A DNA stretch of 37,424 nt, taken from positions 1 through 37,424 of the forward strand of contig CAJTGF010000054.1 in assembly GCA_910575585.1 (NCBI GenBank). The letters are read 5' to 3'. The notes under the pieces are model-generated. The model made no database searches, had not been told where the DNA came from, and saw nothing but the letters and a program-made list of their open reading frames with translations. Both the position numbers and the translations under genes were made by a program. Of the stretch, positions 1-20,414 are shown in pieces. Position 1 is the stretch's first letter, and every line of letters begins with the position of its first letter. Source of the stretch: Clostridiaceae bacterium (GTDB taxonomy: Bacteria > Bacillota > Clostridia > Lachnospirales > Lachnospiraceae).

Positions 1-189
1 TCCCTATCGAAACCACCTTAAGCGAGCAAATCCCGGCCAGCGAATTCTGCTTTTGCCCGGGAGGGAAGGGAGGCTGTGTGCCGGGCGGGTGAATATATGC
101 TATGGAGATGAGACCAGGAAAGCAGGAGGGATGATACCCGACTGATTTCCGCTTTGGGCTCATCGGAATGTCTGGCATATCTGAACCCG
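1..189 (+). repeat. Foldback repeat copy A (3'-truncated)
   Basis: This stretch matches copies B and C near 16.3-17.0 kb: the 5' leader with CACCTTAAG and GAGCAAA, the long arm (55-87), the conserved inner segments with GATGAGACCAGG (about 108-119) and CTCATCGGAATG (159-170), and GGCATATCTGAACCC (174-188). The apical stem keeps pairing (GGAAA at 117-121 with TTTCC at 146-150). Similarity stops at about 189. The 3' arm and 3' basal strand expected by comparison with B and C are missing, so the copy is truncated. Its 5' end may lie outside the window. The arm sequence is close to that of copy B. Confidence 0.85.
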
Positions 190-394
190 AATGAATCAAT
201 GCCCTTCCAATAATATCTTTACATCTTGGACAAGTTACGATATATTTAAAGAAAAAAGAAATCTGCGGCAATACTCTGACCGAATCTTAAAAACTATTTC
301 AATGACACATCACAGCATACAAAAGACTTGCGTAAAGGGGCGCCATCTGTCACAAAGATGATCAGCAACAGAGTACAGGAAGGCAGGAGGAAAG
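190..394. other. Intergenic leader upstream of the RpiR-type gene
   Basis: No credible coding region is seen. The stretch is AT-rich around 200-310 and probably carries the promoter of the downstream regulator, but I could not find a convincing -35/-10 pair. The short open frame starting at 328 overlaps the regulator in another frame and has no family resemblance. A GGAGG-type ribosome binding site lies just before 395. Confidence 0.5.
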
Positions 395-14609: not shown

Positions 14610-14693
14610 ACCTGAAAATTGGGATATAGCCAGTCCGGCAAAACTGTGTTAAACTTAAAAAAACACAGAGAAAGCAGGGGAGGCTTGACCGGA

Positions 14694-16244
14694 ATGAAGA
14701 AATTGTGGATTTATTTGGCAATGCCTGTGGCGCTGTTAAACGGATGTCAGCGTCAACAGGCTCTTTTAGATGAAGCGGGAAGTCTGGCAATGGAGAGTCC
14801 TAAGGACAGCGGACAGCAGGACGGGGCAGCGAAAGATCAGGAGGAGACCGGCAGGGAGCAGGATGGGACAGTTAAGGATCAAGAGGAAACCTGGGATGAG
14901 TCCCTTCCCCAGGGCAGCGGGGGCAAGCCGGCAAGCGTGGTCTTAAGCCAGAACAGCGTCAGAGAGGCGGCTTTTGAGGGCTCCACGGTATCTCTTGTCA
15001 GGTCTGTAAAGGAGGAGGCGTCAGCCATTGACGAGGCGGAGATTGAGGCCATGGTCCGGGAGGCGGCAGCAGATCTTTACACGGTGGTGAAAAACGGGCA
15101 GACGGTTGTGATCAAACCCAACCTGGTGCAGATGATCGTGGATTCCACAGGGGAGAAACTGGACCAGGAGGTAAACGGGGTCACCACGGACTGGCGGGTA
15201 ACCAAGGCGGTTCTTAAGATGGTTCGGGAACTGAACCCGGACGGAACGGTATACATCATGGAAGGTTCCGCCACCGGGCCTACCAGGGAGGTAATGGAGT
15301 ATTTTCATTACACCGATGCCTATCTGGAAGGGGTGGACGGATTTATTTGTCTGGAGGAGGACTGCGGCGATTGGCAGGATTTTGACGCCAAAGAGGTGGT
15401 GAAGGTGGAGACGCCGGAAGGGCTTTTGCACAAATCCTACTATTTTAATAAGATTCTCTACGAGGCGGATGTGGTCATCAGCATTCCGGCCCTGAAAACT
15501 TCCTCCGGCGTGGTGGTGACGGCGGGGATCAAGAATGTCAGCCTGGGAACGCCTCCCGGCAATCTTTACGGCGCAGGGCCGGATACGCCCAGCAAACAGA
15601 AGATGGTTTCCCACAAGATCGTGGACGGGGAATTGGACAAATGGATCTACGATTACTACAAGGCAAAGCCTGTGGATTATGTGATCGTGGACGGTCTGCA
15701 GGGATTTCAGAGCGGGCCTGTGCCTATGTCATCTCAGCGGAAAGAGTCGGACAAGATGAATATGCGTCTGGTGCTGGCAGGCAGGGACGCGGTGGCGGTT
15801 GATACGGTGTGCTGTCTTATCATGGGCTGGGACCCGGAAAGTGTAGGGTATCTGAATCTGTTTCGGGAAAAAGACGGCCTGGGGGATCTGGCAGATATCC
15901 GGGTGAAAGGGATTTCGGCGGATCAGGTTCGGCGGCAATTTACCATCTATAAGGAAAACCTGGGCGGAAAAATGGCTCTGCAGACCCAGGGACCCAATCT
16001 GTGGGCGGACATGATAGCAGACGGGGACAGCGCGGTTATACGCTACCGGACAACGGAGGAGGCTGCCAGGGTGGAGGTGTATGTCGACGGGCTGTTTCAG
16101 GGGTCCAGGCCAGTGGATGAGGGGACGAAGGAAGGGAGGATCGATCTGATCATACCGGGGCTGGGGTCAGGGGAACACGAGATCTTCGTGGCGGCTTATG
16201 ACAGATTTTTGAACCGGACCGTTAAGACCGTGGGCGGGAAGTAG
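14694..16244 (+). CDS. DUF362-domain lipoprotein
   Basis: About 516 residues from the ATG at 14694, with GGGGAGG upstream; an open frame from 14619 adds 25 unlikely residues. The N-terminus is a lipoprotein signal: two Lys, a hydrophobic run and a lipobox ending at C18 (LLNGC). Residues about 40-85 are an acidic low-complexity linker with KDQEET occurring twice. The DUF362 domain spans about 115-420, with VVIKPNLVQ, SIPALKTSSGVVVTAGIKN and a later AVAVDTVCC segment. DUF362 proteins are sometimes linked to metal or iron-sulfur chemistry, but no cysteine cluster is visible here. The last 80 residues look like a beta-rich module. It separates tepA from ftsK, so it may be an insertion into a conserved pair. 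Confidence 0.78.
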   Translation: MKKLWIYLAMPVALLNGCQRQQALLDEAGSLAMESPKDSGQQDGAAKDQEETGREQDGTVKDQEETWDESLPQGSGGKPASVVLSQNSVREAAFEGSTVSLVRSVKEEASAIDEAEIEAMVREAAADLYTVVKNGQTVVIKPNLVQMIVDSTGEKLDQEVNGVTTDWRVTKAVLKMVRELNPDGTVYIMEGSATGPTREVMEYFHYTDAYLEGVDGFICLEEDCGDWQDFDAKEVVKVETPEGLLHKSYYFNKILYEADVVISIPALKTSSGVVVTAGIKNVSLGTPPGNLYGAGPDTPSKQKMVSHKIVDGELDKWIYDYYKAKPVDYVIVDGLQGFQSGPVPMSSQRKESDKMNMRLVLAGRDAVAVDTVCCLIMGWDPESVGYLNLFREKDGLGDLADIRVKGISADQVRRQFTIYKENLGGKMALQTQGPNLWADMIADGDSAVIRYRTTEEAARVEVYVDGLFQGSRPVDEGTKEGRIDLIIPGLGSGEHEIFVAAYDRFLNRTVKTVGGK

Positions 16245-16314
16245 TGTTACTGTTTAGGTCCAATAGCATTAACTTAAGTGCTGAGAACGATTTCTTGCGC
16301 AAAATAGAAAAAAT

Positions 16315-16587
16315 TAAATTGTTGTATTGTTGAGTGAGCAAAGGCGGGGATAGTCGCGGAGCCCGGGAGGGAAGGCAGGCTGTGTGCCGTCCGGGTTCAG
16401 ATATGCCAGACATTCCGATGAACCCAAAACGGGAACCAGGAGGGGTTAGGCCCTCCTGGTTCCCTGGTCTCATCTTCATGGCATAGATTCACCCTGCCGG
16501 CACACAGCCTGCCTTCCCTCCCGGGCAAAAGCAGATATTGGCTGGCCGGGATTTGCTCGCTTAAGGTGTTTTTGATAGGGGACGCTG
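16315..16587 (-). repeat. Foldback repeat copy B
   Basis: A long rod-like inverted repeat oriented on the minus strand. Basal stem: 16330-16342 with 16552-16564 (11 of 13 pairs). Outer arm: 16361-16388 is the exact reverse complement of 16499-16526 (28 bp). Apical stem: 16431-16444 pairs perfectly with 16451-16464 around a 6-base loop. The inner segments match copies A and C. The arm sequence (GCCCGGGAGGG...) is shared with A but differs fully from that of C. No coding potential is seen. Outer limits are approximate and set by similarity to copy C. Confidence 0.9.
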
Positions 16588-16720
16588 TTTCGACTCTGTA
16601 GTGAAAAGATAACTGCTTTGGCGGCAGATCCTTTCAGGTTCCCAACAACATCACCTTACCATTACTCAACAATATACTTGAGGCCATAAAAACAGCTTTT
16701 TTTTCGCTGCAAAGCTGAGG
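16588..16720. other. Spacer between repeats B and C
   Basis: No gene is seen. It is bounded by GGGGACGCTG (16578-16587) and CAGTGTCCCC (16721-16730), which pair at 9 of 10 positions and belong to the 5' ends of the two facing repeats. ATTACTCAACAATATA at 16661-16676 resembles the 3' end of copies B and C, perhaps a remnant of a further copy. Confidence 0.5.
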
Positions 16721-16984
16721 CAGTGTCCCCTACCGAAACCACCTTAAGTGAGCAAACCTTAGCCAGCGAATTCTGGTTTTGCCAGTCAGAGGAGAGCTGT
16801 CCCGGCAGGGTGAATCTATGCCATGGAGATGAGACCAGGAAAATAGGAGGGCCTCACCCCGAGTGTTTTCCGCTTTAAGGGCTCATCGGAATGTTCGGCA
16901 TATCTGAACCCGGACGGGACAGCTCTCCTCTGACTGGCCTCACGACAATCCCCGCCCATTGATCACTCAACAATCCAGCAATAT
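16721..16984 (+). repeat. Foldback repeat copy C
   Basis: Same organisation as copy B, opposite orientation. Basal stem: 16744-16756 with 16958-16970. Outer arm: 16781-16804 is the exact reverse complement of 16915-16938 (24 bp), but its sequence is unrelated to the arms of A and B. The inner segments CTATGCCATGGAGATGAGAC (from 16816) and CTCATCGGAATG (16882-16893) are conserved. Apical GGAAAA and TTTTCC pair where copy B has GGGAAC and GTTCCC. The 3' limit is approximate. Confidence 0.9.
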
Positions 16985-17083
16985 GACGAATTTAAAGTTC
17001 TGCGCTATCCTGGTTAGAGTGAATGAATGGCAGGATTCGCTAAACTAAATGACATTGGTTCAGGTCAGAGTTTTTGCAATGCC

Positions 17084-17180: not shown

Positions 17181-20100
17181 GTGGCTGGAACGGCAAAAAG
17201 CAGCAGGACGACGGCGAAAAAGTCATCGTCTTCAAGATCAAAAAAACAGACCCAGGCAAAGCAGCAAAAAGATACCGCATTTATGCGGGGGGAAGTGTTC
17301 CTGATCGCTTCCTTTGCCTTGGCGGTCTTATTATTTTTAAGTAACTTTCACCTGTGCGGCGTGGCAGGGGACTATCTTAGAAAGGTGCAGCTGGGGATCT
17401 TTGGGATGATGGGGTTTCTTGCTCCGATCCTCCTGTTTGTGGGTACATGCTTTGCCATGTCCAACCAGGGCAATCCCATTGCGGCCCTTAAGATGGCAGC
17501 GGCGGTGACAGGGGGGTTGATCCTCTGCGGCCTGGCGGAGATGGTGTTTGGCGGAGGCTATAAAGCGGGGCAGAAGATCATGGACGCCTATATCCGCTCC
17601 TCGGAAAACGGCCTTGGAGGCGGTCTGGTGGGCGGTATTTTGGCCCAGGGGCTGGGATCGGTTCTGGGCGTGGTGGGGACATACCTGATCCTTTTGGTGG
17701 TATTTTCCATCTGCTGCGTGTGCGTCACGGAACGGTCCCTGGTGGCTCTGGTGAAACGGGGCGGAGGACGGGCCTATGCCTATGCCAAGGAGGATGCCCG
17801 CCGCCGCAAGGAGATCCATGAGGAGCGCAGACAGGAATGGATTAGACGGCGGGAGGAAGAGGAAATTCGCCGCCAGGAAGAGCAGCGGGTGCGGGGCGTT
17901 AACCTGGATGCCACCAAGCTTGGCGGCTATGAGGAAGAGACGTACGCAGATGGGTACAGCGGCGTTTATCAGGAGGATGAGTATTACGACGAAGCCTATG
18001 AGGATGGCGGGACAGACGGATACATAGATGAAGAAGCGGACGGCTGGGACGAAAACGGCGTTCCGATGACTGCGTCCGGCCGCATGCCTCAGGAACACCG
18101 GGAGGATGTCTTTACCGGGGAGATCTCCCTGCCGCCTCAATACACAGACGAGGAGGAAGGGGACTTTGACGAGGAGGACGTGATGGCGGTCCATGACGCC
18201 CTGCGGACCGTGTGGCAGGATGTGGCCGATGAGGCTGTCTCGGACGGGGATTGGGATACCCTGGATGCCAGAGGACCCTATGACACCGGCGGCGCCAGGA
18301 ACAGCCGCGTTGGGCAGACGGAAGAGGAAAGCGATCAAAGGCACAGCCGCGGGCATGAGCCGAATCCGGGCCAAAAGGCGGGAAGCGGGATGTACGGGAC
18401 ATCCGCGGCTTACCAGGGGCCGGAGCACTCCGGGGAGCTGGACCAGGATGAGGGTTTTGGAGCATACCAGACATCCGTGGAAGATCAAAGGCCGGTATAC
18501 GGCGATGATCCGATCCGGTATCCCGATGCCGGGATTTATGAAATGCCAAAGACAGGCCGGGAACAGGAATACCCGGAGGATGTTGGCCGCAGTCACCAGG
18601 ATGACCCCATGCCGGAGACCATCAGCCACTGGGTACCGGAGCTTAAAGAGGAGCCTATTCTGCGGGTGCCGCCTGCCGGGGCGGCAGGTTCCGTCTTTGA
18701 CCAGGATCTGTCCGCTTTTAGCAGGAAAGACCGGGGAGAAGAGCCGGAAGCGGATGTCCAGGATCCGGGGGACTTTCGGATCCCCGAGGAGAGCAAGCGG
18801 GTGGTGACAGCTTCCGGCAAGATCATAGAAAATGACACGGAGGCCCTGCAAAAGAAGGTGGAAAGTCGCCGCCGGGAAGTGGCGGCGGAGCGCGGGGACG
18901 ATGCCCTGGGGGTGGCGGCTCAGATAAAAGAGAAGGAGATTGTGAAAAAAGAATATCAGTTCCCTCCCGTGACTCTGTTAAAGAGGGGGAGCAAGCCGGC
19001 GGGGGCCTTTTCCGAGCAGGAGTACAAGGATACGGCCATTAAGTTACAGCAGACCCTAAAGAATTTCGGCGTGGGCGTGACGGTGACCAACATCAGCTGC
19101 GGGCCGTCGGTGACCCGGTATGAACTGCGGCCGGAGCAGGGGGTAAAGGTCAGCAAGATCGTAGGGCTGGCGGACGACATCAAGCTTAGTCTGGCGGCGG
19201 AGGATATCCGAATCGAGGCCCCCATCCCAGGGCGGTCCGCCGTAGGCATCGAGGTGCCAAACAAGGAGAATACCACGGTGTATCTGCGGGAGATTTTTGA
19301 GGCGGAGGACTTTAAGAAAGCCGCCTCTGGCCTGTCCTTTGCCGTAGGCAAGGATATCGGCGGCCAGGTGGTGGTGACGGATATTGCGAAGATGCCCCAC
19401 CTTTTGATCGCCGGCGCCACAGGATCGGGAAAATCGGTGTGTATCAACACTCTGATCATGAGCATTCTGTTTAAGGCAAGCCCCGATGACGTGAAGCTGA
19501 TCATGGTTGACCCCAAGGTGGTGGAATTAAGCGCTTACAACGGCATCCCGCACCTTTTGATCCCTGTGGTCACGGACCCGAAAAAGGCTTCGGGGGCGTT
19601 AAACTGGGCGGTGGCGGAGATGATGAGCCGCTACGACAAATTTGCCAAATACAACGTAAGGAATCTGAAGGGATACAACGCTAAGATCGAGTCCATAAAT
19701 GACATTGAGGATGAGGACAAGCCTCAGAAAATGCCCCAGATCGTCATCATCATCGACGAGCTGGCGGACCTTATGATGGTCTCGCCCGGGGAGGTGGAGG
19801 ACGCCATCTGCCGTCTGGCCCAGCTTGCCAGGGCGGCGGGCATCCATCTGGTTATTGCCACCCAAAGGCCGTCGGTCAACGTTATCACAGGTCTAATTAA
19901 GGCCAACGTTCCTTCCAGGATCGCCTTTGCCGTCTCCTCGGGAGTGGACTCCAGGACTATTATCGATATGTACGGGGCGGAGAAGCTTTTGGGAAAAGGC
20001 GACATGCTGTTCTACCCCTCCGGGGTTCCCAAGCCCCAGAGGGTCCAGGGAGCCTTTGTCTCCGACCAGGAGGTGGCGGACGTGGTGGAATTTCTGGCGT

Positions 20101-20414
20101 CCCAGGGCATGGAAGCCGGGTATCAGGCGGATATTGAAAGTAAGATTGCGGCCGCGCCGGCAGGCGGCGGGGGAGAAGCCCCAAAAAACAACGGCCGGGA
20201 TGAATATTTTGAACAGGCAGGAAAATTTATCATAGAGAAGGACAAGGCTTCCATCGGTATGCTCCAGAGGATGTACAAGATTGGATTTAACCGCGCCGCC
20301 AGGATCATGGACCAGCTGGCCCAGTTCGGGGTAGTAGGCGAGGAGGAGGGCACAAAGCCCAGAAAAGTCCTGATGACTGTTGAAGAATTTGAGGACCTGT
20401 TGTCACAGGAGTAA
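17181..20414 (+). CDS. ftsK: DNA translocase FtsK/SpoIIIE
   Basis: A 1077-residue DNA translocase that pumps chromosome ends across the division or sporulation septum. Four hydrophobic segments (residues about 36-56, 70-90, 103-122, 155-180) anchor it. A long acidic, Tyr/Gly/Asp-rich linker spans about 200-600. The motor has Walker A GATGSGKS near residue 745 and Walker [12 protein letters not shown] near 853. The winged-helix gamma domain, which reads polar DNA sequences, is at about 1010-1075 ([20 protein letters not shown]). Start is GTG at 17181, ten bases after AAGGAGG. The linker is longer than the short one in Bacillus SpoIIIE. It has its own promoter, just past the repeat cluster. Confidence 0.95.

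What the first reader, a model, noticed from the sequence alone, without database searches (positions are those of the whole stretch)
16315..16984. Foldback repeat family with unrelated yet self-complementary arms
Seen directly: copies B and C share a conserved leader, inner segments and 3' tail. Their long arms (28 bp at 16361-16388/16499-16526; 24 bp at 16781-16804/16915-16938) are perfect inverted repeats with no resemblance between copies. The apical stem also shows pair-for-pair changes, such as GGGAAC/GTTCCC in B against GGAAA/TTTCC in A. Together with a 13-bp basal stem each copy makes one rod about 230 nt long. Compensatory change of this kind suggests that the fold matters, as in a structured RNA or a hairpin DNA substrate for a transposase acting in trans. 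I recognise no named family.
Basis: partly seen in the sequence, partly recalled or inferred. Interest (0 to 1): 0.8.

Follow-up and report, generated by a model that had tools for sequence, protein, structure and literature searches.

The report
Mobile DNA hairpins with self-matching arms
A gut bacterium carries many small non-coding mobile DNA pieces that fold into hairpins; the hairpin tip is shared with related bacteria, while the two long arms change from copy to copy yet stay matched to each other, apparently because one arm is copied from the other.

Summary
B (+ strand) and C (- strand) have perfect 28-bp and 24-bp arms that do not resemble each other. They are two inverted halves of one non-coding mobile element with many relatives in the same genome (genus Hungatella). 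Some relatives carry other arm types, and chimeras with unmatched arms occur. One empty site shows a 2-3-bp target duplication containing TA.

A covariance model of the hairpin finds it in 15 genera of the same family, up to 67 copies per genome. Unpaired tip bases are conserved; 23 of 35 modelled stem positions show all four Watson-Crick pairs. In several genomes nearly every copy has its own arm (about 20-140 bp), about 97% Watson-Crick paired.

That is too quick: even between copies 96-99% identical, 14 of 32 changed arm sites changed on both sides, and tip mismatches show no clear RNA-type wobble bias. Best reading: MITE-like foldback elements whose arms are kept matched by DNA-level copying of one arm from the other, with a tip conserved for an unknown recognition. 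No Rfam family, phage or plasmid match, or transposase partner was found in the searches made.

The parts
16252..16260 (.). left candidate target duplication GTTTAGGTC
   Evidence: 8 of 9 identical to 17058-17066
16261..16278 (+). outer left end (CAATAGCATTAACTTAAG)
   Evidence: 3 mismatches of 18 to the end of an insertion-sequence-like element in L047
16279..16315 (+). B-type end region of the element family
   Evidence: aligned with other copies
16318..16349 (+). left inner terminal repeat with the basal stem strand of unit B
   Evidence: inverted repeat with 16951-16982, 81%
16361..16388 (+). unit B 5' arm
   Evidence: 28 of 28 complementary to 16499-16526
16382..16505 (+). unit B conserved tip with inner arm ends (model R1)
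   Evidence: 132.3 bits
16499..16526 (+). unit B 3' arm
16537..16771 (.). spacer between the two units, itself an imperfect inverted repeat
   Evidence: 16537-16619 with 16689-16771, 75% complementary
16781..16804 (-). unit C 3' arm (read on the minus strand)
   Evidence: 24 of 24 complementary to 16915-16938
16797..16922 (-). unit C conserved tip with inner arm ends (model R1)
   Evidence: 143.2 bits
16915..16938 (-). unit C 5' arm
16951..16982 (-). right inner terminal repeat
16984..17021 (-). A-type end region (approximate limits)
   Evidence: aligned with other copies, diverged (5 mismatches)
17040..17057 (-). outer right end (CAATGTCATTTAGTTTAG on the minus strand)
   Evidence: 2 mismatches of 18 to the L047 end
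17058..17066 (.). right candidate target duplication GTTCAGGTC
76..199 (-). copy A: a further unit at the contig start, 5' arm missing
   Evidence: 114.7 bits; sequence

Best explanation
The region is a non-autonomous, MITE-like mobile element made of two inverted copies of a foldback hairpin unit. SHOWN: dispersed multi-copy family; mostly intergenic units; shared ends; a short duplication containing TA at one empty site of a relative; a hairpin with a conserved asymmetric tip and covarying stems, present in 15 genera of one family; arm sites that changed on both sides together between close copies. INFERRED: arms stay complementary mainly because mismatches are removed at DNA level by using one arm as template for the other (quasipalindrome correction or template switching), so that arm sequence drifts while the palindrome persists. 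INFERRED, weaker: unpaired tip bases stay conserved because some factor in trans must recognise the hairpin for the element to move or survive, and a DDE-type transposase in trans moves the outer shell.
For: 115 blastn matches in the own genome, 16 near-full copies besides the window's at 86-94% identity; end motifs 46 and 42 times, 0 in reversed controls. Empty site in G007 with the flanks overlapping by 2 bp. 7-bp duplications in G328: at least 6 of 7 identical in 23 of 34 units whose ends were found, of 43 given; random 7-mers 2 of 680. Covariation against two controls. Over 110 of 115 units 8233 of 8465 arm cells are Watson-Crick, 110 G.U, 62 A.C, 60 other. Nearest copies: sites changed on both arms against on one arm 113/90 in G328 and 146/87 in G132; in the twelve G328 pairs at 96% identity or more 14/18 with 914 unchanged, where independent change would give below one double (my sum). 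Unit centres in long open frames 9 of 60, against 106 of 120 control positions. Template switching is proposed to create and maintain perfect stems (PMC8794818, passages), and concerted arm evolution is reported in Nematomorpha mitochondria (PMC6649704, passages).
Against: Changes on one arm outnumber those on both in G326 (45/25), G334 (74/54) and G256 (31/21) and in the twelve closest G328 pairs (18/14), so correction is not instantaneous; these pairs share members and are not independent. Arms are fully perfect in only 30 of 110 units. The local alignment favours paired stretches, and one G256 locus was counted twice there (L134 and L201 overlap). G.U exceeds A.C in arms (110/62), which leaves room for weak RNA-level selection. 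Correction keeping the asymmetric tip loops needs added selection. No transposase was found. Shells differ in ends and duplication length, which a single transposase does not explain.
Confidence: 0.62

Rival explanations
1. A structured non-coding RNA family whose stems covary through selection for the RNA fold; the mobile shell only spreads it.
For: Conserved unpaired bases and covarying helices are typical of RNA families; G.U exceeds A.C in arms, 110 to 62.
Against: No Rfam match at gathering score and none at E up to 1 in seven related loci. In the tip G.U 34 against A.C 27 without one junction position. No orientation bias to neighbouring genes. Paired changes at 1-4% divergence are more than stepwise compensation readily gives. 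No transcript data were available.
Confidence: 0.15
2. A DNA hairpin kept complementary by selection alone (for example as a hairpin substrate of a transposase), through ordinary stepwise compensatory mutations and without templated correction.
For: Tip loops are conserved over 15 genera; many one-arm changes exist as possible intermediates.
Against: Arms of about 80-140 bp in G132, G328 and G334 are close to perfect; one mismatch in so long a stem should hardly be selected against. Both-arm changes are common at 1-4% divergence, and a 3-nt insertion is present in both arms of type 2b against type 2.
Confidence: 0.15
3. Arms are captured from phage, plasmid or host sequence, a CRISPR-like or microRNA-like memory.
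For: Nearly every copy has its own arm in G132, G256 and G121.
Against: One G132 arm searched in its genome was found as its own two arms plus two weak partial matches, one of them at another unit. No match for the window element in plasmids or phages, for L173 in phages or for L243 in plasmids. Related copies show arms drifting by substitution. Only these few arms were tested.
Confidence: 0.03

Closest known systems
Bacterial MITEs such as RUP, BOX and ERIC (PMC10969869 passages; PMC3049150 listing and start of abstract; TA duplication of RUP and ERIC recalled)
   Same: Non-coding, intergenic, multi-copy, inverted ends, target duplication, stable fold, insertion into one another
   Different: Here copy-specific arms of up to about 140 bp and one tip conserved across genera in shells with different ends and duplications
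REP/REPIN and RAYT-moved palindromes (PMC3116915 and PMC3733652, listing and start of abstract)
   Same: Dispersed hairpins moved in trans, intergenic
   Different: REPs are 20-40 bp by the abstract seen; here units of about 150-350 bp with target duplications; the GTAG/CGTC tag was not searched for
Concertedly evolving perfect inverted repeats of Nematomorpha mitochondria (PMC6649704, passages)
   Same: Arms change together and stay perfect; a conversion mechanism is proposed there
   Different: Those lie within mitochondrial protein genes; these are bacterial mobile elements with a conserved tip
Repetitive hairpin-forming elements of sponge mitochondria (PMC2800124, listing and start of abstract)
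   Same: Repeated hairpin-forming elements thought to invade genomes
   Different: Mitochondrial; no relation was tested

Membership tests
MITE (non-autonomous DNA transposon) | Dispersed, multi-copy, short and non-coding | tested here: met
   115 blastn matches, end pairs 270-1064 bp apart; no recognisable gene seen inside the window copy (one search lists one 85-codon frame overlapping its left part)
MITE (non-autonomous DNA transposon) | Terminal repeats and target duplication | tested here: met
   Shared ends; empty site; 7-bp duplications in 23 of 34 G328 units
MITE (non-autonomous DNA transposon) | An autonomous partner with the same ends | tested here: not met
   None found: three DDE_3 ORFs of the own genome are not near listed ends; 12 further G328 end regions gave one YhgA-like protein below cut-off. 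Assembly is fragmented and the search was partial
IS630/Tc1-mariner derived MITE | TA target duplication | tested here: inconclusive
   The flanks overlap by 2 bp in G007, but the duplicated letters lie within TAA (TA, AA or TAA fit) and G007 reads CAA; TA fits the other copies by eye
REP/REPIN | 20-40 bp palindrome | tested here: not met
   Units are far longer
Known Rfam family | Match at gathering score | tested here: not met
   0 in the whole window
Functional structured RNA | Covariation with wobble pairs favoured on the transcribed strand | tested here: inconclusive
   Tip G.U 34 and A.C 27 without one position, 83 and 30 with it; arms 110 and 62
Functional structured RNA | Transcript | not testable with these tools
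   No RNA data

The most novel reading that the evidence does not exclude
The conserved tip is the recognition module of an undescribed hairpin-processing system: an enzyme acts on the folded strand and re-makes the second arm from the first at each round of movement or repair, so that arms are nearly perfect, free to drift, and the same tip can ride in unrelated transposon shells.
Probability: 0.15. Interest if true: 0.88.

Novelty: new variant of a known kind. Interest (0 to 1): 0.6.

Why it matters
Here palindrome arms evolve in concert in bacteria, with dozens of copies per genome, so the rate and mechanism of arm-to-arm correction could be measured. It also warns that strong covariation, usually taken as proof of a functional RNA fold, can arise from DNA-level copying between arms. 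And a tip kept over 15 genera, in shells with different ends and target duplications, points to an unknown recognition.

Tried and rejected
Known RNA family: no match. Captured phage, plasmid or host sequence: no support in the few tests made. Cis-regulatory RNA: no orientation bias. Transposase partner: none found; the L047 ORF had no Pfam match. Viruses: the exact tip pattern gave 0 in viral contigs (diverged tips would be missed). Literature: six searches listed no description of this repeat; nothing beyond them was searched. Structure prediction and fold search were not used, as the element shows no protein.

Rows dropped or doubled: 8 reverse readings of 116 before the tip count; 5 of 115 units without usable arms; one G256 locus counted twice there; 4 of 78 loci without a recognised apex; L127 left out of the model alignment (33 of the 34 rows of A1), while chimera L061:2922-3127 was kept. 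Genome scans above 40 genomes score few candidates per genome and lose weak matches.

Mended on checking: the duplication at the empty site is given as 2-3 bp containing TA, not as TA for certain; 'all four pairs' holds for 23 of 35 stem positions, not for almost every one.

Full report
OBSERVATION. Both arm pairs are perfect (28 of 28 and 24 of 24) and unrelated to each other. The repeat map shows that C is on the minus strand and that 16318-16982 is one inverted structure: two hairpin units back to back around a spacer. Copy A (76-199, minus) lacks its 5' arm.

FAMILY IN THE SAME GENOME. The window is contig C54 of a 6.13-Mb genome in 253 contigs. The element gives 115 blastn matches, among them 16 near-full copies besides itself, at 86-94% identity. 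End motifs occur 46 times (A type) and 42 times (B type) with up to 3 mismatches, 0 times in the reversed controls. Of 26 genomes of the genus, own included, 8 have blastn matches. End pairs lie 270-1064 bp apart. Arms come in several types, each with its own complement; some copies join the left arm of one type to the right arm of another (L052, L055, L061; L040).

MOBILITY. In L006 the element interrupts an open frame; in G007 the flanks (77% and 70% identical) are contiguous and overlap by 2 bp. The duplicated letters lie within TAA, so that TA, AA or TAA fit; G007 reads CAA. Other copies fit TA by eye. The window copy has further outer ends like those of an unidentified insertion-sequence-like element in L047, and flanks agreeing in 8 of 9 bases. 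Copies in G001, G003 and G200 have ends AGGYAATTGCG with longer duplications: 13 of 13 in L116 and L120, 12 of 13 in L117 and L137, 11 of 13 in L111; of 17 loci given, several had no clear ends. Copies in G328 have ends CTCAAACTTCGCAGG and 7-bp duplications (at least 6 of 7 in 23 of 34 with ends found, of 43 given; random 2 of 680). One tip in shells with different duplications is the oddest fact here and is unexplained.

STRUCTURE. A1 holds 34 representative units. RNAalifold gives 43 pairs, 29 with changes on both sides. Controls: 95.5% of cells paired (shuffled mean 82.4; slid 35.0-48.2), 193 double-change cells (shuffled 52.4), score 0.393 (shuffled 0.151), each reached by 0 of 500 shuffles; the measure 'further pair types' was not above the shuffles (126 of 500). 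The shuffles do not keep relatedness.

DISTRIBUTION. Model R1 matches 12 of 299 genomes of the family, about one per genus, own included, and 12 of 392 of the order sample; all of these carry the own family label, but the output does not show how many other families were sampled. The genus labels of both lists add up to 15. Presence is patchy: 5 of 13 genomes in the genus of G132. Matches per genome, partial ones included: G132 67, G328 44, G256 26, G222 14, G107 13, G326 11, G334 9, G121 8, G215 5, G329 2, G292 1.

ARMS. In G132, G256 and G121 nearly every copy seen has its own arm; copies in G107 share a similar arm, and the three G200 copies seen share theirs. Over 110 units of 115 given, 8233 of 8465 cells are Watson-Crick, 110 G.U, 62 A.C, 60 other; perfect units are 5 of 41, 9 of 23, 4 of 9, 0 of 9, 12 of 22 and 0 of 6 for G328, G132, G326, G334, G256 and G121 (local alignment favours paired stretches; one G256 locus counted twice). 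Between nearest copies, both-arm against one-arm changes are 113/90 in G328, 146/87 in G132, 25/45 in G326, 54/74 in G334 and 21/31 in G256. The twelve G328 pairs at 96% identity or more sum to 14 double, 18 single and 914 unchanged; seven of them share L274. Independent change would give below one double. A process that changes both arms together is therefore needed; templated correction is the simplest and is described for other inverted repeats (PMC8794818, PMC6649704, passages). Selection on pairing may add to it.

RNA OR DNA. In the tip alignment (108 of 116 rows) there are 3516 Watson-Crick cells, 83 G.U, 30 A.C and 79 other; 49 of the G.U lie at one junction position where A and G alternate opposite T; without it G.U is 34 and A.C 27. 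23 of 35 stem positions show all four Watson-Crick pairs (my count). Units are mostly intergenic (9 of 60 centres in open frames of 150 codons or more, 106 of 120 control positions) and not oriented to their neighbours (38 and 34 of 66).

CONTEXT. The element lies between a DUF362 protein gene (14619-16244) and an FtsK/SpoIIIE gene (17181-20414).

VERDICT. A real family of mobile foldback elements with a conserved tip. Its strong covariation is best read as DNA-level concerted evolution of hairpin arms plus unknown selection on the tip. I found no description of it in six searches of the open library; its kind, MITE-like palindromic repeats, is known.

Noticed in passing
L047:467 and L050:351: Two different inserts with CAATGTCA ends both sit directly after CTCATC in the hairpin tip, as if the tip were an insertion target.
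   Followed up: no
L007, L033, L035, L051, L067, L077: The A-type end often abuts a ribosome-binding-site-like AGGAG stretch in front of a start codon.
   Followed up: no
window 16247-16260; L029, L034, L039, L090: Copies with CAATG-type outer ends are preceded by a similar TTACTGTTCACAGG-like stretch: a target preference or one more repeat.
   Followed up: no
L308:371-450: An 80-bp palindrome with the G328 ends and no tip, perhaps a tip-less deletion derivative.
   Followed up: no
L286, L287, L288, L290: Four G328 copies carry an extra TAAATTACTAAAGTAATT-like stretch on one side of the tip only.
   Followed up: no
L032, about 1421-1470: Two elements abut and share the letters GGGTTAGACCC at the junction, as if one inserted at the end of the other.
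   Followed up: no
G000 contigs C12, C36, C119; several G004 contigs: Many matches lie at contig ends, so these repeats probably break the assemblies and copy numbers are low estimates.
   Followed up: no
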